From assembly GCA_030706225.1 (NCBI GenBank), contig JAUZOW010000004.1, forward strand, positions 1 to 39,246: a stretch of DNA of 39,246 nt, read 5' to 3'. Below the pieces are notes generated by a model. That model searched no databases. It saw nothing but the letters and a program-made list of their open reading frames with translations, and had not been told where the DNA came from. The position numbers and the translations under genes are program-made. Of the stretch, positions 2,856-26,066 are shown piece after piece; position 1 is the first letter of the stretch, and every line of letters begins with the position of its first letter. Source of the DNA: Bacteroidota bacterium (GTDB taxonomy: Bacteria; Bacteroidota; Bacteroidia; Bacteroidales; FEN-979).

Positions 2856-4178
2856 ATGAATGCAGGAACCGATCATTTAAAAAGAAACAGCCGGATTTAC
2901 GTCATCTACAGAAAGATCAGGTTTCTCTTAAAACAAGGTTCCCTTTTCAGAAAAAAACAAAATAGAACCAGGAAACACGCTAAAATGCCATTCCTGGTAA
3001 AGTATCTGAAATTCGTTTTCAGCACCAAAGCAAAACGGCATTTTAAGGGAATCCGGGAAGCGGAAAGAATCCGTTTAGCCTCCGGGCCTAAAGGATATGA
3101 ATCTCTTACCGGAATCCCCTTTTTTATTGCTCCTCCGGATCTTTCATTTCCTCCTGCCCGGATCCCTTTTACCCTGAGGATTTATCGTATGTACCGTATT
3201 CTGCGATATCTCTTAATCAGGAAAAGAACTGAACGCAGAAAAAAACAATCTGAAAAACATCAAGCGAAAAAAGAACAAATCCGACGGATATGTTATCATG
3301 CACGAAAAGGTACTTTATTCAGAGTTAAAATTTCAAATCCTTTCACTCCCTTTTTGGAATATTTAAAGGAACAGTTTCGTAAAAGCAACCTGCTCATATT
3401 GCTGAATTCCACTACCCTTTTCCTTCTGTCTTACTTCTTTGTCTTTACCATAAGACTTTTTACAAAAGCAATTGCCGCAAAAACGCTTGATATTTCTACC
3501 ATCATTTATTACAAAGATGTCGATTTTCTGATCCGGAGCTCTCAATGGACCGTGGATGCCGTTAAAGTCGTTTATTCTTCCGCTCCCTTTATCTTCTTGA
3601 TCATCAGTATTATTTCTTTGATCATTTATAAAACTTTTCTTGAAGAAAAATGGATGTCCCGGCTGTTTGTCTTCTGGATCTTTGCGCATTCTTTTATTCA
3701 GGTTTTCGGGGATGTAATGATCGGATCCATGGTAAATCAGGGATTCGGCTATGTATTGATGTACTTGTTCCTCGATGATACTGAAAAATTATTCGTTTCC
3801 CTTGGATCCTTCGTCTTTATCCTTGTGACCGGGTTTGTTATGGGAAAGAATATGCTCTATACAGGAAATATTTATTATAATTTTCTGCTTCGGAAAAATC
3901 GGGGATATTTCGTCGCTTCCCAGTATTTTCTTCCTTTTATCCTTGGAAGTTGCATTATATTTTTACTTAAAGAACCGAAAATATTACCATTCGAAATAGC
4001 CGTCGATTCTTCTCTCCTGCTCTTCCTGATACCGGCATTTCTTAGAATGCCCTTTGTTAACGATCTTTACTTTGATGAAAATCCAAGAAAAATCAAAGCC
4101 GCTGTTATTCCATTAATTACAGCGGCTTTGATTGCTATATTATTCAGAGTGATCCTTGGCCAGGGAATCCGGATGTAA
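2856..4178 (+). CDS. Hypothetical multi-pass membrane protein with a long basic N-terminus
   Basis: I do not recognise a family. The 440-residue product splits in two. Residues 1-175 are very rich in Lys and Arg (e.g. RKRTERRKKQSEKHQAKKEQ) and probably cytoplasmic. Residues 178-435 hold about seven hydrophobic segments, near 178-200, 238-258, 268-288, 312-330, 352-371, 384-398 and 413-435. A conserved-looking loop reads FGDVMIGSMVNQGFGYV (284-300). The start is uncertain: ATG at 2856 follows the spt stop by 14 bases, and Met44 at 2985 is an alternative. The context suggests co-expression with spt, so a role in lipid or envelope biology is possible, but that is inference. Its 3' end carries a perfect inverted repeat that looks like a terminator for the opposite strand. 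Confidence 0.7.
   Translation: MNAGTDHLKRNSRIYVIYRKIRFLLKQGSLFRKKQNRTRKHAKMPFLVKYLKFVFSTKAKRHFKGIREAERIRLASGPKGYESLTGIPFFIAPPDLSFPPARIPFTLRIYRMYRILRYLLIRKRTERRKKQSEKHQAKKEQIRRICYHARKGTLFRVKISNPFTPFLEYLKEQFRKSNLLILLNSTTLFLLSYFFVFTIRLFTKAIAAKTLDISTIIYYKDVDFLIRSSQWTVDAVKVVYSSAPFIFLIISIISLIIYKTFLEEKWMSRLFVFWIFAHSFIQVFGDVMIGSMVNQGFGYVLMYLFLDDTEKLFVSLGSFVFILVTGFVMGKNMLYTGNIYYNFLLRKNRGYFVASQYFLPFILGSCIIFLLKEPKILPFEIAVDSSLLLFLIPAFLRMPFVNDLYFDENPRKIKAAVIPLITAALIAILFRVILGQGIRM
4085..4133 (-). terminator. Rho-independent terminator of the DUF6913-dapA-M14 operon, inside a convergent gene
   Basis: A perfect 15-base inverted repeat: AATCAAAGCCGCTGT at 4091-4105 pairs with ACAGCGGCTTTGATT at 4119-4133, with a 13-base loop that can form three further pairs. 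Read on the minus strand, the stem is followed by TTTCTT, and transcription would reach it 50 bases after the M14 peptidase stop at 4183. On the plus strand no T-run follows, so it suits the minus-strand operon. It lies wholly within the coding sequence of the convergent membrane protein. Confidence 0.7.
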
Positions 4179-4182
4179 TCCC

Positions 4183-5907
4183 CTATTCTTTAAGCAATTT
4201 TCCTTCCCAGATGTTACCGGCAGCATTCATAAACCGGATCAGGTAAAATCCTTTAGCATAACCCGAAATGTCAAGATTGATAAACGGATATTCAGGGTTT
4301 TCAGTGCCTTCCATTGATGTCACTTTATTTCCCAGTACATTAAAAACATCAAGAGAATAACCGGTAGCAACACTTTCCGGTAAAATAATCCGGCACTGGA
4401 TGCTGGAAGGATTCGGAAGTATATTGAGCTTCCCTGATGTAGTTTTTCCGTTTACTCCGAAATTTAACGGTACAAGCTGAACATTTTGCCGGTTTGTCTG
4501 GTATTTGACCGTACTGATCCCGTTAACGAGTTTCGTATTATATCCATCACATGAATAAGTCAAATCATACGTTCCATCAAATATCGGCCGGAAATACCAA
4601 CCCGAAGGAAGATGTGAATAAACAAAGGAATTGTCCTTATCGTGACCGAAAATAAACACCTTTGCATTTAAGGGTTTTCCTGAAACAGTATCCGTAATCT
4701 GCCCGTTGATGCCATATCCTGCTTCTTCAATATAATCCAGAATGGAACGTTTATTATAATTCCAATAATAAATTAATTTATACACCTGACTGGAAGGTAG
4801 ATTTTTAGTCGATGATATCTCAAGTGTTACTTCACGTCCGAATTTATAATATGTAGTATAGTCCTGGCGGCCGCCATATACACAATACCAGGCATACCCA
4901 TTGGTAATTCCATTATTTTCATCGGTAAAATAACCGGAAGTGCTGTATTTATGAACCGTGTCTGCATATTCTCTTCCGGTGAATTTCCACCAGTTGTCAT
5001 CTGCATGAAGCCTTGGCCATGTATCCCACGGATAATTGTAAACTTCTGATCCTCCATGGAAGTTCATAGACATGACAAAATCCGAATCGGCAATAGCCAT
5101 AAAAGCTATGGTTTCCGGTTGCCAGGCATATCCGTCAGGATGATCCCCTCCGGCCATATTGGGAAAATTCCGGTTCAAATCGACTCCGTTTGCATTATAA
5201 CGCGTAGAACCGTAAACGGTATTATTTCCTCCATGATAAGTCCCGTCCGGATTGGCAAGAGGGTTGATATAAATCTCAAAATTATCTACCAGATTAGTAA
5301 TGCGTGGATTCGTGCCATACCCGGAAAGCAGAGAATCAATCATGTGCAGCATCAACACATACCCAACCGTTTCATCTCCATGTATGGAAGATGTCAGCAA
5401 AACCCTGGGCTTTCCGCGTGAATAATCAACGCTGTCGCTGATCTTTACCATCAGAAGCTGACGTCCCTGGGTAGTAGTTCCGAAATTGATCAGTTTGCAT
5501 AAGGAAGGATTATTAGATGCAAAGTCATTCATATATTGCACGTACTGATCATAGGTCGGGTAAAAATTCCAGATAACACCTGAACCCGGAGCTTTAGGGC
5601 CGGTCATGATAGCATTATCGCCGGTCATGATTCCCGGATTCGGTAGTCTTGTAACCGAATATCCCAATGCGGAGAATTTCCTGAACTGTTCCGGGGTTGC
5701 ATATGCAGTGACCACATTCCCTTTGACATTATCAATTGAAATCATCCGGGTTATGGATACAAGTTCGTTTTTGTCCTTTATAGAAAAGCGGAAATAGATC
5801 TCGTCTGCACTATATTGTGAATTGCTCATGACGGGGGATATATTCTGAGCGGAAATTGTAAAAGTAAGCCCTAAAAATACTGAAAGGAGAAGGATGAGAT
5901 GTTTCAT
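4183..5907 (-). CDS. Secreted M14 zinc carboxypeptidase with T9SS sorting domain
   Basis: The 574-residue precursor starts with a signal peptide, MKHLILLLSVFLGLTFTISA. The M14 catalytic domain spans about 115-395: HGDE gives zinc ligands His176 and Glu179, NANGVDLNRNFP gives substrate-binding Arg246, MNFHGG gives zinc ligand His284, and VTLEIS gives catalytic Glu363. A carboxypeptidase regulatory-like beta sandwich follows (about 400-475). The C-terminus is a T9SS type A sorting domain, beginning KLNILPNPSS and ending GNIWEGKLLKE. The enzyme should remove C-terminal residues from peptides outside the cell or on its surface. Its ATG overlaps the dapA stop by one base (TAATG), implying translational coupling to a gene with no obvious functional link. 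Confidence 0.92.
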   Translation of the reverse strand: MKHLILLLSVFLGLTFTISAQNISPVMSNSQYSADEIYFRFSIKDKNELVSITRMISIDNVKGNVVTAYATPEQFRKFSALGYSVTRLPNPGIMTGDNAIMTGPKAPGSGVIWNFYPTYDQYVQYMNDFASNNPSLCKLINFGTTTQGRQLLMVKISDSVDYSRGKPRVLLTSSIHGDETVGYVLMLHMIDSLLSGYGTNPRITNLVDNFEIYINPLANPDGTYHGGNNTVYGSTRYNANGVDLNRNFPNMAGGDHPDGYAWQPETIAFMAIADSDFVMSMNFHGGSEVYNYPWDTWPRLHADDNWWKFTGREYADTVHKYSTSGYFTDENNGITNGYAWYCVYGGRQDYTTYYKFGREVTLEISSTKNLPSSQVYKLIYYWNYNKRSILDYIEEAGYGINGQITDTVSGKPLNAKVFIFGHDKDNSFVYSHLPSGWYFRPIFDGTYDLTYSCDGYNTKLVNGISTVKYQTNRQNVQLVPLNFGVNGKTTSGKLNILPNPSSIQCRIILPESVATGYSLDVFNVLGNKVTSMEGTENPEYPFINLDISGYAKGFYLIRFMNAAGNIWEGKLLKE

Positions 5908-6803
5908 TATGCGTTATCTATTTGCTGAATGAGGTTTTTAATAGTGTTATAGATATCGGGTCTGACGGGAACCAGCGGTAACCGTAAGTAATTTTTACAA
6001 ATCCCCTTGATTTCAAGTGCGGCTTTAATTCCGGCAGGGCTGCCATCGGAAAACAAAGCATTAATCAGATCAATCAGCTTAAAATGGATAAGTCTTGCTT
6101 TATCAAAATTCCCTTCCAGTCCCAGGCGGACCATATCACTGAATTCCCTGGGATAAACATTTGCTACAACTGAGATCACCCCATCAGCACCAGCCGAAAG
6201 CAAGGGTAGCGTTAATCCATCGTCACCTGAAATTACCAGAAAATCTTTCGGGCGATCTTTCAGAACATGATAAATCTGATCAAAGTTCCCGGAAGCTTCC
6301 TTGATTCCAATAATATTCTTTACATCATTTGCCAGTCGAAGCGTTGTCGTTGCTGCAATATTGCTGCCTGTCCTGCCGGGCACGGTGTACAGGATCACCG
6401 GCTTTGGACTGGCTTCTCCAATCGTTTTAAAATGCTGGTAAATGCCTTCCTGCTGAGGCTTATTATAATACGGGCATACTGAAAGTATAGCATCCACGCC
6501 ATTCAGTGGCATGCCATGAATGGAAAGTATGACTTCAGTAGTATTGTTTCCCCCGATACCCAGAACCAGAGGGACTCTTCCGTTGATCTTTGAAACTGCA
6601 TATTCGCAGAAAGTCTTTTTTTCCTGTTTGGAAATCGTTGGAGATTCGCCAGTCGTAGCCATCAGGACAATATAATCTGCCCCATTGCCGATCACATGTT
6701 CAAGAAGTTTATCAAAGGACCGGAAATCAATAGCTCCGGCTTTTGTGAAAGGCGTAACAATAGCCACACCTGTTCCCCTAAGCGTTGACAGAAGGTTCTG
6801 CAT
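5907..6803 (-). CDS. dapA: 4-hydroxy-tetrahydrodipicolinate synthase
   Basis: A 298-residue TIM-barrel aldolase of the DapA family, usual length. Key residues are visible: TTGES with Thr50-Thr51, YTVPGRTG with Tyr139 and Arg143, and GIKEASGN with the Schiff-base Lys168. It condenses pyruvate with aspartate semialdehyde, the first step of the diaminopimelate/lysine branch, and so feeds both lysine and peptidoglycan synthesis in the cytoplasm. Its 5' end overlaps the DUF6913 gene by 26 bases, and its stop overlaps the M14 peptidase start by one base. DUF6913 next to dapA is a common pairing in Bacteroidota. Confidence 0.95.
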   Translation of the reverse strand: MQNLLSTLRGTGVAIVTPFTKAGAIDFRSFDKLLEHVIGNGADYIVLMATTGESPTISKQEKKTFCEYAVSKINGRVPLVLGIGGNNTTEVILSIHGMPLNGVDAILSVCPYYNKPQQEGIYQHFKTIGEASPKPVILYTVPGRTGSNIAATTTLRLANDVKNIIGIKEASGNFDQIYHVLKDRPKDFLVISGDDGLTLPLLSAGADGVISVVANVYPREFSDMVRLGLEGNFDKARLIHFKLIDLINALFSDGSPAGIKAALEIKGICKNYLRLPLVPVRPDIYNTIKNLIQQIDNA

Positions 6804-7341
6804 TTTTATTGATTACAGTTAAATAGTAGATGATTTGCTTTATAAATTCATCAAGAGTAGCGGCAGGATTCAGGTTAATCATAAAATCATAGCAGCAGGT
6901 ATTCTCTTCGGTGAATCTACCCACTCTGCACTGAGCGCGTGAATGACCTGCCACGTATTGGACAGGGATCATTTCTTTCAGTGACAGATCAATCAGAAGA
7001 TCGAATTCTGTTTCCGTGAAATCCTTTACTCTTTTTTGTACAGGTACATTGAACCAGGTCACATCCTTTCTGGAAAAAAAATCATAGGAAAGCTTGGGAA
7101 GAAATCTTCCGATCAGGTCTTTATTCCTGACAAATCCAAGTGCTTTTACTTCCTTATGCTGGCGTTGAAGCTCCGTCACAAAACCGGACACAGTATCATA
7201 ATCAAGAGTATCATTCAGAACATAGATGATACCAATACGCCTGGCATCTGCCAGATTGATCATGGCTCTTTTCCGGTTAACTTTTACAAGACTTTTCCGT
7301 AACCGGGATTTACTGATGATACTGCGAAGATTTCTTATCAT
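6778..7341 (-). CDS. DUF6913 family protein
   Basis: A 187-residue soluble protein found in Bacteroidota, often directly upstream of dapA; its function is unknown. Visible traits are a basic N-terminus (MIRNLRSIISKSRLRKSLVK), then an alternating alpha/beta pattern, with IGIIYVLND and the segment FDLLIDLSLKE looking like Rossmann-type strands. A Cys pair occurs in ENTCCYDFMINL near the C-terminus. There is no signal peptide or membrane segment. It leads a three-gene overlapping cluster with dapA and the M14 peptidase. The family name is from memory of this sequence type and gene order, so the DUF assignment is moderately sure. Confidence 0.75.
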   Translation of the reverse strand: MIRNLRSIISKSRLRKSLVKVNRKRAMINLADARRIGIIYVLNDTLDYDTVSGFVTELQRQHKEVKALGFVRNKDLIGRFLPKLSYDFFSRKDVTWFNVPVQKRVKDFTETEFDLLIDLSLKEMIPVQYVAGHSRAQCRVGRFTEENTCCYDFMINLNPAATLDEFIKQIIYYLTVINKNAEPSVNA

Positions 7342-7503: not shown

Positions 7504-8268
7504 TTGATTATAACTTTTCTGGGTACCGGAACTTCCCAGGGTGTTCCGGTTGTTGCCTGTACATGTCCTGTTTGCCGTTCCACGGATCCACGAGATAAAC
7601 GTTTACGTTCCTCCCTGCTGGTTGAAACCGATGGCAAAAGAATAGTTATCGATTGTGGAATGGATTTCCGTCAGCAAATGCTCCGCGAAGATATCCGCTC
7701 TATGGATGCCATTCTGATTACCCATGGACATAAAGACCACCTCGGGGGGCTCGATGATGTCAGAGCTTTCAATTATATCCTTAAAAGGCCTGCCGATGTT
7801 TACGCCAACCGGGAAACTCAGCGCTCCATAAAAAAAGAATTTGCCTATGCTTTTTCAGAAGACAGGTATCCTGGTGTTCCTGAAATCAACCTTCATACAA
7901 TCAATCTGAAACCTTTCACAGTTGACGGTATTAATGTAATCCCCATTAAAGCCAGGCATTATAACGAACATTTTGTTTATGGTTTCCGTATCGGGGATTT
8001 TACTTATATCACGGATGCTGTCGAGATTGCACCCCGGGAACTGAACAAAGCAAGGGGTTCCAGAGTTGTGGTCATCAATGCTCTGCGGAAACAGGTCCAT
8101 TATTCTCATTTTAACCTCGATCAGGCTGTTGCTATACTGAAAGACCTTCATCCTGAGAAGGGATTTATAACCCACATCAGCCACCAGATGGGAATGTACA
8201 ATGAGGTTAACCCTGAGTTGCCTGATTTTATTAATCTTGCCTGGGACGGGTTAAAAGTTGAATTTTGA
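7504..8268 (+). CDS. PhnP-like MBL-fold metallo-hydrolase
   Basis: A 254-residue metallo-beta-lactamase-fold protein. Metal-binding motifs are THGHKDHLGG (His74, His76, Asp78, His79), a later histidine in KARHYNEH, an aspartate in YITDA and a histidine in THISHQ. The opening GTGTSQGVPV and the CTCPVC cysteines (20-24) are typical of the PhnP-like subgroup, where cysteines bind a structural zinc. PhnP itself is a cyclic phosphodiesterase, but relatives outside phn operons have no fixed role, so only phosphodiesterase-like hydrolase is supported. The start is TTG at 7504; an in-frame TAA lies at 7489 and no ATG comes between. The gene abuts the convergent lipoprotein gene with no gap. Confidence 0.88.
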   Translation: MIITFLGTGTSQGVPVVACTCPVCRSTDPRDKRLRSSLLVETDGKRIVIDCGMDFRQQMLREDIRSMDAILITHGHKDHLGGLDDVRAFNYILKRPADVYANRETQRSIKKEFAYAFSEDRYPGVPEINLHTINLKPFTVDGINVIPIKARHYNEHFVYGFRIGDFTYITDAVEIAPRELNKARGSRVVVINALRKQVHYSHFNLDQAVAILKDLHPEKGFITHISHQMGMYNEVNPELPDFINLAWDGLKVEF

Positions 8269-9912
8269 TTAATATTTTCTGACTTTTCTCAGATCCAGCA
8301 GATTCATCGGATCGCATTCCATTCCAACAATATTGCTTTGAACAAAGCGTAACACCTGATCGTAATACAGAATTACTACCGGCGCTTCTTCCATGATCAG
8401 GCTGTCCATTTTATGATAACAGGTTTGGCGAAGGGTGTCATTGACTGCAGCCATGGAGATATCGTAAAGTTTATCGAATTTCGGGTTAGAAAAACGGGTG
8501 TAATTCGGGCCATTCGGGCAGAAATTACGGGTACTGAACAGTGAAAGATAATTTTCAGCATCCGGATAATCTGCAATCCATGAAGCACGGAAAAACGGAA
8601 GTTTAGCCTGTGCTTTCATCTCCTTGACGGCTGCCGGTGGTGAAACTTCAATCTTCATTTGGATACCTTCCTCTCCCAGCCTGTTCTGCAAGTATTTGCA
8701 GATATCAAGATAATCGGATGTTGTGGTTAATGTTATCGGCGGCATCCCTTTTCCGTCAGGATAACCTGCTTCTGCCAATAGTTTTCTGGCTTTTTCCGGA
8801 TTATAATCATAACCTGCAGATGTGCTGTCGTATGGAGGTAATCCTCTCGGGATAATCCCGTTAATTCCAGGAAAGCCTATATTATTCCTTAAAAACCGGA
8901 TCATTTTACGGCGATCGAATGCATAATTGATAGCCTGACGGATTTTCTTTAATCTGAGTGGGCTGGTATTAACTTCGGAAAGGGATGTATCCATAAGAAT
9001 TCCAAGGTATTCCGTATTCAGGTATGGCTTTGTGATCATATGAAACCTGCCGCTGTAACGTGGTTTCAGTTTCCCATCCGGAGTCAGGAGTTCATCTTTA
9101 TAGGTTGGATCGATCCCCGACATGAAATCCAGGCGTCCCTTTAAAAATTCCAGAAACGCCGATTGCTTATCCGACAAAAAAGTAATGGCAACCCCATCAA
9201 GAAAAGGCAGCCTTTTTCCGTAATATGTTTCAAAATATCGGGTATTCTTCACCAAAACCAGCTTGATCCCTTCCTTCCACAATTTGAATTTAAAAGGCCC
9301 CGTACCTACGGGATGCTTACGGAAATCCTGACCATACTCTGCAACCGCTTCCATGGGGACAACCGAACAATAGACAGTGCTCAGAAGTCCGAGAAAAGGC
9401 GGAAAAGCCTGGTTTAAGCGGATAATAAAAGTTGAATCATCAGATGCATCAAAGGCATACCTTCCCTTTTCCTGACTCACATAATTAAAGATCCAGAGTC
9501 CCGGTGATGCTACCCTGGGATTTGTAATCCTGTTAAAACTGAAGACGAAATCATGCGCATTGACCCGTCTCCCTCTTCCTCCCGGAAAAACCAAATCATC
9601 ATGAAAAAATACATCCTTCCTTAAATGAAATGTGTACTTCATCCCATCGGGAGAGATTTCCCATGATTTGGCAATGGCAGGACAGATATTCAGCCGGGTA
9701 TCGAGCTGAACCAGCCCGTTGAAGAGCTGATGAACTGCCCATATATTGGCCTGATCACGTGCAAAAGCCGGATCCAGTGAAGAAATCCCTGCTGCTTCAT
9801 TGTACCGGAATACCTTTCCGGATTCATCCGTATACTGTTCTCTGCAGGAAGTATGAATCAGTAACAATGCAGGAAAAAAAAGAAAAAGTACAATCCAGTG
9901 GAAATATTTCAT
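8269..9912 (-). CDS. Peptide/oligopeptide-binding lipoprotein (SBP family 5)
   Basis: A 547-residue extracellular solute-binding protein of the OppA/DppA family. It begins with a lipoprotein signal peptide ending LLLIHTSC, acylated Cys at residue 23. Family motifs include SSLDPAFA, NGLVQLD, AKSWEISPDGMKYTFHLRKD, DFVFSFNRI, GTGPFKF and QAINYAFDRRKMIRF. Such proteins hand di- or oligopeptides to an ABC permease. No permease or ATPase gene lies nearby, so partners must be elsewhere or it works alone. The frame is open upstream to 9963, but the chosen ATG at 9912 is the one giving a proper signal peptide. It is divergent from two secreted aminopeptidases, a sensible pairing for peptide uptake. 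The final bases abut the convergent hydrolase gene. Confidence 0.88.
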   Translation of the reverse strand: MKYFHWIVLFLFFPALLLIHTSCREQYTDESGKVFRYNEAAGISSLDPAFARDQANIWAVHQLFNGLVQLDTRLNICPAIAKSWEISPDGMKYTFHLRKDVFFHDDLVFPGGRGRRVNAHDFVFSFNRITNPRVASPGLWIFNYVSQEKGRYAFDASDDSTFIIRLNQAFPPFLGLLSTVYCSVVPMEAVAEYGQDFRKHPVGTGPFKFKLWKEGIKLVLVKNTRYFETYYGKRLPFLDGVAITFLSDKQSAFLEFLKGRLDFMSGIDPTYKDELLTPDGKLKPRYSGRFHMITKPYLNTEYLGILMDTSLSEVNTSPLRLKKIRQAINYAFDRRKMIRFLRNNIGFPGINGIIPRGLPPYDSTSAGYDYNPEKARKLLAEAGYPDGKGMPPITLTTTSDYLDICKYLQNRLGEEGIQMKIEVSPPAAVKEMKAQAKLPFFRASWIADYPDAENYLSLFSTRNFCPNGPNYTRFSNPKFDKLYDISMAAVNDTLRQTCYHKMDSLIMEEAPVVILYYDQVLRFVQSNIVGMECDPMNLLDLRKVRKY

Positions 9913-22913: not shown

Positions 22914-24161
22914 ATGGCTATACTAAAAGCATTCAAAGGCTTGAGACCTCCAAGGGAGATCATTAAAGACCTGGCTTCAAGACCTTATGATGTGCTGAAC
23001 TCTGAAGAAGCAAGAGAAGAAGCAAAAGGGAATCAATACTCCTTATTACACATCATTAAACCTGAAATAGATCTCCCTCCGGATACCGATGTTCATTCAC
23101 AACCGGTTTATGAAAAAGCCCGTGATAATTTTAAAAAGTTTATCCAGAATGGATGGCTGATACAAGATTCCAAAGAATATCTGTATATCTATGCCCAGAC
23201 CATGAACGGAAAAACACAATACGGTATCGTGGGTTGCGCCGGTGTTGAAGATTACATGAACGGGATCATTAAAAAGCACGAACTGACGCGGAAAGACAAA
23301 GAAGAAGACCGGATGAAACATGTACGCATTACAGATGCCAACATGGAACCTGTCTTCTTTACCTACCCTGCTGTTCCTGAAATTGACAAAATTGTTGCTG
23401 ACTTCGTGAAAAACAACGAACCTGAGTACGATTTTACTTCAGTCGACGGAATCGGCCATCATTTCTGGGTAATCCGCGAACAGGATATCATCAGGAAAAT
23501 CATTTCGCTTTTCGAAAAGATCCCTTATACGTATGTAGCAGATGGTCATCACCGGACTGCTGCCGCTGCATTGGTGGGAAATGAAAAAAAGAAAAATAAC
23601 CCTCACCATCACGGAGATGAAGAATATAACTTCTTCCTGGCGGTTCATTTTCCGGATAACCAACTTACTATTATTGATTATAACCGGGTCGTAAAAGATC
23701 TCAACGGCAATACTTCCGCTGAGTTTCTTGAAAAACTTGGAAAAATCTTTGAAGTAAAGGAAAAAGGAAAAGAAATCTACAAACCGACAACCCTTCACAA
23801 TTTCAGTCTTTACCTTGAAGGGAAATGGTATTCGCTTACCGCTCATCCGGGTACCTTTGATGATTCCGATCCGATCGGCGTTTTGGATGTAACTATCCTT
23901 TCCCGCCTGGTTCTGGATCAGATTCTGAATATCAAAGATCTCCGTACATCCAACCGCATCGATTTCGTCGGTGGAATCCGCGGATTGGGTGAACTGAAGA
24001 AACGTGTCGACAGTGGCGAAATGGCGGCTGCCTTTGCATTATACCCTGTTTCCATGAATCAGCTTATTAATATTGCCGATTCCGGAAATATTATGCCTCC
24101 AAAAACTACTTGGTTCGAACCTAAACTCAGAAGCGGACTTGTCGTCCATCTACTGAAATAA
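22914..24161 (+). CDS. DUF1015 family protein
   Basis: A 415-residue protein of the DUF1015 family, which is common in bacteria and often lies beside serA in Bacteroidota and clostridia. Family hallmarks are FKGLRPPREI and RPYDVLNSEEAREEA at the N-terminus, then KHELTRKDKEEDR, and YVADGHHRTAAA (208-218), a histidine-rich putative active site. The C-terminal part includes DFVGGIRGLGEL and ends PKTTWFEPKLRSGLVVHLL. The function is not established; a kinase role in serine metabolism has been discussed for relatives, and the operon position here fits such a link. No signal peptide or membrane segment, so it is cytoplasmic. It closes the operon, with a strong terminator 10 bases after the stop. 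Confidence 0.9.
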   Translation: MAILKAFKGLRPPREIIKDLASRPYDVLNSEEAREEAKGNQYSLLHIIKPEIDLPPDTDVHSQPVYEKARDNFKKFIQNGWLIQDSKEYLYIYAQTMNGKTQYGIVGCAGVEDYMNGIIKKHELTRKDKEEDRMKHVRITDANMEPVFFTYPAVPEIDKIVADFVKNNEPEYDFTSVDGIGHHFWVIREQDIIRKIISLFEKIPYTYVADGHHRTAAAALVGNEKKKNNPHHHGDEEYNFFLAVHFPDNQLTIIDYNRVVKDLNGNTSAEFLEKLGKIFEVKEKGKEIYKPTTLHNFSLYLEGKWYSLTAHPGTFDDSDPIGVLDVTILSRLVLDQILNIKDLRTSNRIDFVGGIRGLGELKKRVDSGEMAAAFALYPVSMNQLINIADSGNIMPPKTTWFEPKLRSGLVVHLLK

Positions 24162-24170
24162 GTTCTTAAA

Positions 24171-24206
24171 AAAAAAGCCGGGAAAACTTCACCGGCTTTT
24201 TTTTTT
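24171..24206. terminator. Bidirectional rho-independent terminator
   Basis: An A-tract runs into GCCGG (24177-24181), a 10-base loop, CCGGC (24192-24196), then ten T. A-T pairing extends the stem on both sides. It can end the plus-strand serC operon, and read on the minus strand it can end the LTA-synthase-like gene, whose stop codon begins directly beside it. Confidence 0.92.
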
Positions 24207-26066
24207 CTAATACTCGAGATACTGGGAAAATACCGCCTGCATATATGCTTTGCCTTCCCGGATAATGGAATCCTGAATAGAGGTATTCATCTTGCAGAAA
24301 TGAAAATAATTCGTCGGAACATCAAATGAGAAAAAGGCATCCGGACGAATCCACCCTCCTCCGTCATCCGAGGCAATATAGGCAAAATCAGGTGTATATG
24401 GATTAAAAAGATTTTTACTCCACTGAAACGATTTGGCTGATAGATGAAGCTGGGCGAGCAATGTTGCCGGAATATCATTATGATTCCCCATCTTGCTCCA
24501 TTTCTTCCCTTTATATTGATCCTTTATGACATTCCCGTAGAAAAGCATCGGAATACGGTGATATTCCTGCGACAACGGATGCCAGTTTCTGTAGGAATTA
24601 TGACTGTGGTCGGCCACAATAATAAACAATGTATTGTCAAACCACGGTTCCTGCTTTGCTTTTCTGAAATATTCGCCAAGACAATGATCGGTGTAATAAG
24701 CAGCATTAATGTACTCATGCTCATTATCTCCCCATTTCAAAGGCTTCGGATAAGGTTGATCCCAGGGAGAATGTGTGCTTACTGTAAATAATGAGGAAAA
24801 GAATGGAACAGGTTCTTTATTAAGCTGCTGAAGCTGATAATTCAATGTATACTGATCATGTATGCCTAGTTTTCCACGGGGAAAAGCCGAAGGGAAGTTT
24901 TCTCCTTCCGTAATCCGGTCAAATTCATTGAACATCATATATCCTCGCATATTTCCGTAAATAAGCTGACCTCCAAAATAAAACGAAGTATGATAACCTT
25001 CTTTTTTCAGAATCTTGACCATACTTGGGAGTTTCATGTATTTATCGGGCTGAACAGTAATCGAGGAAACCTGATGAGCCGGGAAGCCACTGAAAATAGA
25101 CGCCATCCCCTGTTCCGACCGGCTTCCGGTTGCATATATCTGATCGAACAGAATTCCGTTCTTCTCCAGTTCCTTGAATTCCGGTGTTATTCCCGGTTCT
25201 CCGCCGAGATCTTCGATTAAATCGGCCGACCAGCTCTCCATGATTAAGATCACAATATTTGGACGTCGATTTTTCAAAATATTGATCGTGGTATCCTTTC
25301 GGGTCCTGTATATATCAGCAACCAGCCTTCGGGCTTCTTCCGGTTTCATGAATACATAAGGATCCTTGTTGAAATTTGCCAGGTTTTCGAATACACTGAT
25401 ATAAAGATTGAAAAAATTATTTACCGAAGCCATATTAAGAATCGTATGGCGGGAATAAAACGATTGGCTCTGATTGATAGGTATTTGCTGAACACCACCC
25501 CGCATTCCGATAAACAGTACCGGAAACATCACAACCATGAATACCAGGGAAAACCACCATTTTCGGGGTGATTCGTGAATTTCAGTGTAAAACAGCTTTG
25601 TATAGGCAAAGAAACCGGCCAAAAATAAAAAGATCAGTATAACCAGTAATATAAAAAAGGTGGAAGTTCCTGCAGAATTGTAAATTTCACTGGGATGCAT
25701 GAAATACTTCAAAACCTTATAGGTAAGCTTTGTTTTCCATTCTGAATATATCCCCATCTCCCCGGCTGCAGTCAAAGAATAAAAAAAGATCATGAGACCC
25801 GAATAGATCTTATTGATTACATTCAGCCACCGGAAGTTGTAAAAACTTTGAACTAAAAGGATCAGAAAAGGTATGACCAGCAAATAGCAGGCTGTTCCTG
25901 CATCAAGCCGGAGGGAATGCCAGAATACTCCGGTAACTTCCGTAAATGGAATATTCTCTGCATTAATGATCTTAAGATAATAAAGGAGAAAAACAAGGCG
26001 TGAGAAATCGAAGAACAGGATCCAGAAAACGAATTGTCTTACAAGTGATACAAGGATCTTTTTCAT
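24207..26066 (-). CDS. LTA-synthase-like membrane sulfatase family protein
   Basis: A 619-residue protein with about five N-terminal membrane helices (roughly 10-30, 55-72, 85-102, 135-155, 172-188) and an extracytoplasmic sulfatase-fold domain from about 268. Metal-site motifs are PNIVILIMESWS with Glu277, VSTHSPWD, and IIVADHSHN. The nucleophile region reads ATGSRSEQG, so Ser317 stands where LtaS and most relatives have Thr. In Gram-positives the family polymerises glycerol phosphate onto lipid; Bacteroidota lack lipoteichoic acid, so the likely role is transfer of a phospho-substituent (e.g. phosphoglycerol or phosphoethanolamine) to an envelope lipid or glycan, which is inference. The gene stands alone between a terminator and a divergent promoter. 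Confidence 0.88.
   Translation of the reverse strand: MKKILVSLVRQFVFWILFFDFSRLVFLLYYLKIINAENIPFTEVTGVFWHSLRLDAGTACYLLVIPFLILLVQSFYNFRWLNVINKIYSGLMIFFYSLTAAGEMGIYSEWKTKLTYKVLKYFMHPSEIYNSAGTSTFFILLVILIFLFLAGFFAYTKLFYTEIHESPRKWWFSLVFMVVMFPVLFIGMRGGVQQIPINQSQSFYSRHTILNMASVNNFFNLYISVFENLANFNKDPYVFMKPEEARRLVADIYRTRKDTTINILKNRRPNIVILIMESWSADLIEDLGGEPGITPEFKELEKNGILFDQIYATGSRSEQGMASIFSGFPAHQVSSITVQPDKYMKLPSMVKILKKEGYHTSFYFGGQLIYGNMRGYMMFNEFDRITEGENFPSAFPRGKLGIHDQYTLNYQLQQLNKEPVPFFSSLFTVSTHSPWDQPYPKPLKWGDNEHEYINAAYYTDHCLGEYFRKAKQEPWFDNTLFIIVADHSHNSYRNWHPLSQEYHRIPMLFYGNVIKDQYKGKKWSKMGNHNDIPATLLAQLHLSAKSFQWSKNLFNPYTPDFAYIASDDGGGWIRPDAFFSFDVPTNYFHFCKMNTSIQDSIIREGKAYMQAVFSQYLEY

What the first reader, a model, noticed from the sequence alone, without database searches (positions are those of the whole stretch)
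4085..4133. Terminator for one operon encoded inside the convergent gene
A perfect 15-base inverted repeat followed by a T-rich tract on the minus strand lies 45-93 bases upstream of the stop of the plus-strand membrane protein gene, and about 50 bases past the M14 peptidase stop. It is within coding sequence for a Lys-Ala-Ala...Ala-Ala-Leu stretch of a membrane helix. The palindrome restricts two strands at once: protein coding on plus, RNA termination on minus.
Basis: partly seen in the sequence, partly recalled or inferred. Interest (0 to 1): 0.6.

Follow-up and report, generated by a model that had tools for sequence, protein, structure and literature searches.

The report
Terminator hidden inside convergent membrane-protein gene
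A stop signal for making RNA from one bacterial gene is written into the end of the protein-coding text of the neighbouring gene that runs the other way; this kind of double use is already known, but a related genus keeps its own version at the same spot with clear signs of selection on both messages.

Summary
A perfect 15-bp inverted repeat (4091-4105 / 4119-4133, three more pairs after one mismatch) lies 45 nt before the stop of the plus-strand membrane-protein gene and 50 nt beyond the minus-strand M14 peptidase stop. Its minus-strand tail is U-rich. It is the second-longest perfect stem in 688 kb of the genome. Its minus-strand terminator score falls in the genome's own terminator range; the plus-strand score does not. 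Only 4 of 1,000 synonymous recodings of the same peptide score as high.

The convergent pair is kept across the order with almost no spacer. None of 27 family orthologues (31-47% identity) keeps the stem. A sister genus (records named Lentimicrobium or Bacteroidales) carries a different stem at the same protein site in 10 of 14 orthologues. There, compensatory base pairs and the highest synonymous conservation in the gene (0.81 against 0.47; ATA-AAA-ATA always kept) show selection on both messages. Best reading: an intrinsic terminator for the minus-strand operon, written into the partner's coding sequence, probably masked by translation on the plus strand. Terminators inside convergent genes are already reported in E. 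coli, so this is a well-documented new member of a known kind. No RNA data were available.

The parts
4091..4105 (-). 3' arm of the terminator stem in the minus-strand RNA (AATCAAAGCCGCTGT on plus)
4119..4133 (-). 5' arm of the terminator stem in the minus-strand RNA (ACAGCGGCTTTGATT on plus)
4106..4118 (-). apical part: one mismatch, three further pairs, 5-nt loop
4075..4092 (-). U-rich tract after the stem (TTTTTCTTGGATTTTC...), encoded on plus by Asn-Pro-Arg-Lys-Ile codons
2856..4178 (+). host gene: 440-aa membrane protein of unnamed family (no Pfam match), C-terminus conserved across the order; ATG start not tested
4183..5907 (-). M14 zinc carboxypeptidase with Por secretion tail, the gene whose transcript would be terminated
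5907..6803 (-). dapA-like gene (DHDPS) upstream in the same tightly packed minus-strand run
6778..7341 (-). 187-aa gene overlapping the dapA-like gene, likely first gene of the minus-strand operon

Best explanation
An intrinsic (Rho-independent) terminator for the minus-strand operon (187-aa gene, dapA-like gene, M14 peptidase) is encoded inside the last codons of the convergent membrane-protein gene because only 4 nt separate the two stop codons. RNA polymerase leaving the peptidase gene transcribes about 50 nt, the GC-centred hairpin folds, and the complex is released in the U-rich tract at about 4080-4092. On the plus strand the same sequence is translated: the tail there is not U-rich enough, and following ribosomes would keep the hairpin open, so the host gene is read through. 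The site suits this use because a Lys-rich stretch (A-rich codons, hence antisense U) precedes the last hydrophobic segment, which accepts many sequences, including Ala codons that give GC pairs. Shown: stem, tail, score, position, synteny, rarity under synonymous recoding, selection on the analogous stem in a sister genus. Inferred: actual termination, ribosome masking, independent origin in the two lineages.
For: Minus-strand d 10.1, dG -21.7, plus-strand d -22.4; of 42 hairpins with d>=10 in 688 kb, 39 are intergenic, 3 are antisense in CDS just after a same-strand stop, none elsewhere. Only 4/1000 synonymous recodings of the last 34 codons reach the observed score. Other strong stems of this genome show the same A-tract, GC stem, T-tract build. 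Sister genus g13: stem at homologous codons in 10 of 14 orthologues, partner is a homologous M14 gene, 0-1/1000 recodings reach their scores, compensatory pairs A-U/G-C at columns 36-53 and G-C/A-U at 40-49 with 11 double-changed cells against 4.1 +/- 2.3 shuffled, synonymous codon identity 0.81 over tail and stem against 0.47 gene-wide with the ten top windows of 257 all at the site, ATA kept though it is 20% of Ile codons there.
Against: No RNA 3'-end data. None of 27 family orthologues has a comparable stem. Most other tightly convergent pairs of this genome have no good terminator on either strand, so termination by another route is common here. The U-tract is interrupted (TTTTTCTTGG), and the plain consensus scan did not list the site, since it allows loops of 3-8 only. 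The peptide itself is somewhat permissive: 26/1000 recodings reach d>=0.
Confidence: 0.86

Rival explanations
1. The stem is a by-product of the peptide: an Ala-rich, roughly symmetric stretch of codons gives an inverted repeat by chance, with no role in RNA.
For: The peptide is unusually permissive (26/1000 recodings with d>=0); no family orthologue keeps a stem.
Against: Only 4/1000 recodings match the observed score; the expected number of such perfect stems is 0.014 in 688 kb; it lies at the one kind of place where antisense d>=10 hairpins occur in this genome; a sister genus selects for one at the same site.
Confidence: 0.09
2. The stem acts mainly after transcription: a 3'-end barrier that protects the peptidase mRNA from exonucleases, with polymerase stopping elsewhere (Rho or collision).
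For: Very stable stem; long stems stabilise mRNA ends (established knowledge); most tight convergent pairs here lack terminators.
Against: In the sister genus the U-tract codons are as strictly kept as the stem, which a mere barrier would not need.
Confidence: 0.06
3. Bidirectional terminator that also ends plus-strand mRNA inside the gene, before its stop codon, giving non-stop mRNA as known for E. coli arfA.
For: The stem is symmetric and its outer A-U pairs give UUUGAUUGCUAU on plus.
Against: Plus-strand score -22.4 is outside the genome's terminator range; the residues after the stem (FRxxxGxGIR) are conserved across the family, so full-length protein is the norm.
Confidence: 0.04
4. A DNA site (regulator or recombinase target) that happens to be palindromic.
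For: Perfect 15-bp arms.
Against: Single copy in the genome even with three mismatches; the stem-to-tail arrangement is that of a terminator; in g13 the stem sequence changes while pairing is kept.
Confidence: 0.02

Closest known systems
Rho-independent terminators in the coding sequence of convergent overlapping genes of E. coli (Lillo and Krakauer 2007, PMC2174442)
   Same: Terminator of one gene placed in coding sequence of the convergent partner; that paper counts 23 of 116 convergent overlapping genes of E. coli with such a signal and speaks of dual coding and regulatory properties.
   Different: Bacteroidales; the genes abut (4-nt gap) and do not overlap; comparative evidence of selection at a homologous site is added here.
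Bidirectional intrinsic terminators between convergent genes (Ju et al. 2019, cited in PMC10319736; PMC7566282; compensatory evolution in PMC5381666)
   Same: Convergent genes, hairpin with A-tract before and U-tract after, compensatory stem changes.
   Different: Those lie between genes and serve both; this one lies in a coding sequence and scores on one strand only.
E. coli mscL-arfA convergent pair (PMC10070815)
   Same: Convergent genes where one 3' UTR lies in the other's 3' coding sequence, with a stem-loop there.
   Different: The arfA stem acts on arfA's own mRNA; here the strong strand is the opposite one.

Membership tests
Intrinsic (Rho-independent) terminator | Stable GC-containing RNA hairpin | tested here: met
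   dG -21.7 for the 39-nt hairpin, 7 G-C among 16 pairs counted
Intrinsic (Rho-independent) terminator | U-rich tract directly after the stem | tested here: met
   UUUUUCUUGG, nT score 4.03; interrupted, so of medium quality
Intrinsic (Rho-independent) terminator | Lies after the stop of a same-strand gene | tested here: met
   50-52 nt after the M14 stop
Intrinsic (Rho-independent) terminator | RNA 3' ends in the U-tract, Rho-independent release | not testable with these tools
   no transcript data
Bidirectional terminator | Functional U-tract on both strands | tested here: not met
   plus-strand d -22.4
Dual-coding terminator (inside convergent CDS) | Host reading frame is a real conserved gene through the stem | tested here: met
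   homologues align through residues 438-440; C-terminus conserved
Dual-coding terminator (inside convergent CDS) | Synonymous sites and pairing under selection | tested here: inconclusive
   met for the sister genus stem; for the window itself only the recoding test is possible, 4/1000

The most novel reading that the evidence does not exclude
The last hydrophobic segment of this membrane-protein family is a recurrent host site for antisense terminators: two lineages of the order independently (different pairing register) wrote a terminator for the convergent M14 gene into the same codons, because Lys-rich then Ala-rich code pre-adapts the antisense strand, and the protein sequence itself (Gly/Ser changes) has moved with the stem.
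Probability: 0.4. Interest if true: 0.55.

Novelty: new member of a known kind. Interest (0 to 1): 0.42.

Why it matters
Tightly packed convergent genes leave no room for terminators. This locus is a clean case where the terminator is written into coding sequence. The sister genus shows that the arrangement is kept by selection strong enough to freeze synonymous codons and drive compensatory changes. It also warns that synonymous-site conservation near gene ends may reflect the neighbour's RNA, not the protein.

Tried and rejected
A single-protein scan of genome contigs found nothing; the alignment scan found 29 loci. The genus of the window has no other genome held, so a close-relative test was impossible. 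The mobile or repeated element idea was rejected: one copy only. A bidirectional terminator was rejected because of the weak plus-strand score. Further families of the order (24 extra loci) gave no third case inside the CDS; in one with a 90-nt gap (L225) the terminator lies between the genes. No structure prediction was run, as it would not bear on the question.

Full report
Observation. The window has one outstanding inverted repeat, 4091-4109 / 4115-4133: 15 perfect outer pairs, one mismatch, three pairs and a 5-nt loop. Both strands fold well, but only the minus strand has a U-rich tail directly after the stem (TTTTTCTTGG). The stem lies 45 nt before the stop of the plus-strand 440-aa membrane-protein gene and 50 nt beyond the stop of the minus-strand M14 carboxypeptidase gene. 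The two stops are 4 nt apart. On the minus strand three genes are packed with overlaps or shared bases (6778-7341, 5907-6803, 4183-5907), so this would be an operon's end.

Is it more than chance? From base composition 0.014 perfect stems of at least 15 bp with a 3-20 nt loop are expected in 688 kb. Four are seen, this being the second longest. The genome's other strong stems are mostly classical A-tract / GC stem / T-tract terminators, so the site looks like the genome's own terminators. I scored hairpin plus U-tail with a d'Aubenton-Carafa-type score on both strands of 61 stretches. Forty-two hairpins reach d>=10: 39 intergenic, 3 in antisense CDS within 150 nt after a same-strand stop (this one among them), none in sense CDS, none elsewhere antisense. 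This hairpin scores 10.1 on minus and -22.4 on plus. Randomly recoding the last 34 codons with synonymous codons gives such a score in 4 of 1000 cases.

The host frame is real through the stem. Homologues across the family and order align to the last residues, with a conserved C-terminus of the FRxxxGxGIR type. The stem codes IKAAV...TAALI at the start of the last hydrophobic segment. The convergent arrangement with the M14 gene is itself ancient: 47 junctions with a clear partner, stops mostly -24 to +116 nt apart.

Conservation. The genus has no second genome held. None of 27 family orthologues with a partner has a comparable hairpin (best d -31.6). One locus of another family, L049, has one at -56 from the plus stop with d 19.2. 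Its genus (records named Lentimicrobium sp. or Bacteroidales/Bacteroidetes bacterium) has 14 orthologues, of which 10 carry a stem with tail at the same place. Stem sequences differ: CGGCAGC...GCTGCCG, CGGCAACC...GGTTGCCG, GCAGCAGCC...GGCTGCTGC. Columns 36-53 switch A-U/G-C and columns 40-49 switch G-C/A-U; 11 double-changed cells against 4.1 +/- 2.3 in shuffles (0/500 reach it); sliding the partner by -1, -2, +1 or +2 drops pairing to 14-34%. The -3 and +3 slides still pair at 68% and 59%, because the stem is built of near three-base repeats, so the cells-paired figure alone is weak evidence. On the protein tree the 40-49 switch occurs in L119 and in the L121-L123 group, which sit in different groups, though many forks are open. 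Among carriers the synonymous codon identity over tail and stem is 0.81 against 0.47 for the gene; the ten best of 257 windows are all here. The Ile-Lys-Ile codons that give the U-tract are always ATA-AAA-ATA where Ile is kept, although ATA is 20% of Ile codons. Recoding reaches carriers' scores in 0-1 of 1000 cases. The partner is a homologous M14 gene.

So in that genus the terminator in the partner's coding sequence is under selection. The window's stem uses overlapping codons in a different register, and its relatives in its own family lack it, so independent origin is more likely than common descent (inference). A Lys-rich stretch followed by an Ala-tolerant hydrophobic segment explains why the same site serves twice (inference).

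Mechanism. The minus-strand RNA forms the hairpin and is released in the U-tract, so the peptidase operon's message ends about 100 nt inside the host gene. Plus-strand transcription reads on because the plus tail is weak and, as known for terminators in translated sequence, following ribosomes would block hairpin folding (established knowledge, not tested). The plus-strand message has no good terminator of its own nearby.

How common is it? Of 41 convergent pairs with a gap of 30 nt or less in the sampled own genome, this is the only one with d>=10 inside the partner. In 396 kb of a sister-genus genome (G342) 13 such pairs hold one further case at d 16.7 (L177) and this locus's own homologue at d 1.2.

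Literature. Lillo and Krakauer (PMC2174442) already state that terminators of convergently overlapping genes must lie in the partner's coding sequence and count 23 of 116 such genes in E. coli. Bidirectional terminators between convergent genes are well known (PMC7566282), and compensatory evolution of terminators has been shown in Bacillus cereus (PMC5381666). The kind is therefore known; the new part is a documented case in Bacteroidales with a comparative signature.

Noticed in passing
window 24168-24205: Classical bidirectional terminator (14-bp perfect stem with A9/T9 flanks) between convergent genes 22992-24161 and 24207-26066; a good contrast to the finding.
   Followed up: partly
L105 8254-8286 (own genome C146): Second case in the own genome: 15-bp stem with T-rich tail (d 17.1), almost wholly inside the last codons of the convergent gene 8252-9079.
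   Followed up: partly
L177 10878-10896 (G342:C1): Terminator with d 16.7 inside the convergent partner's coding sequence where the two genes overlap by 10 nt, in a sister-genus genome.
   Followed up: no
L081 8383-8425 (own genome C24): Longest perfect stem of the sample (19 bp, 5-nt loop, no T-tail) in a stretch with no called gene (7934-9000).
   Followed up: no
window 2856-4178 and orthologues L002-L056: Membrane-protein family without Pfam match, next to a convergent M14 peptidase gene across many families of the order; the lasting pairing may be functional.
   Followed up: partly
own genome sample: Most convergent pairs with a gap under 30 nt have no strong intrinsic terminator on either strand, so overlapping 3' ends or Rho must be common here.
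   Followed up: no
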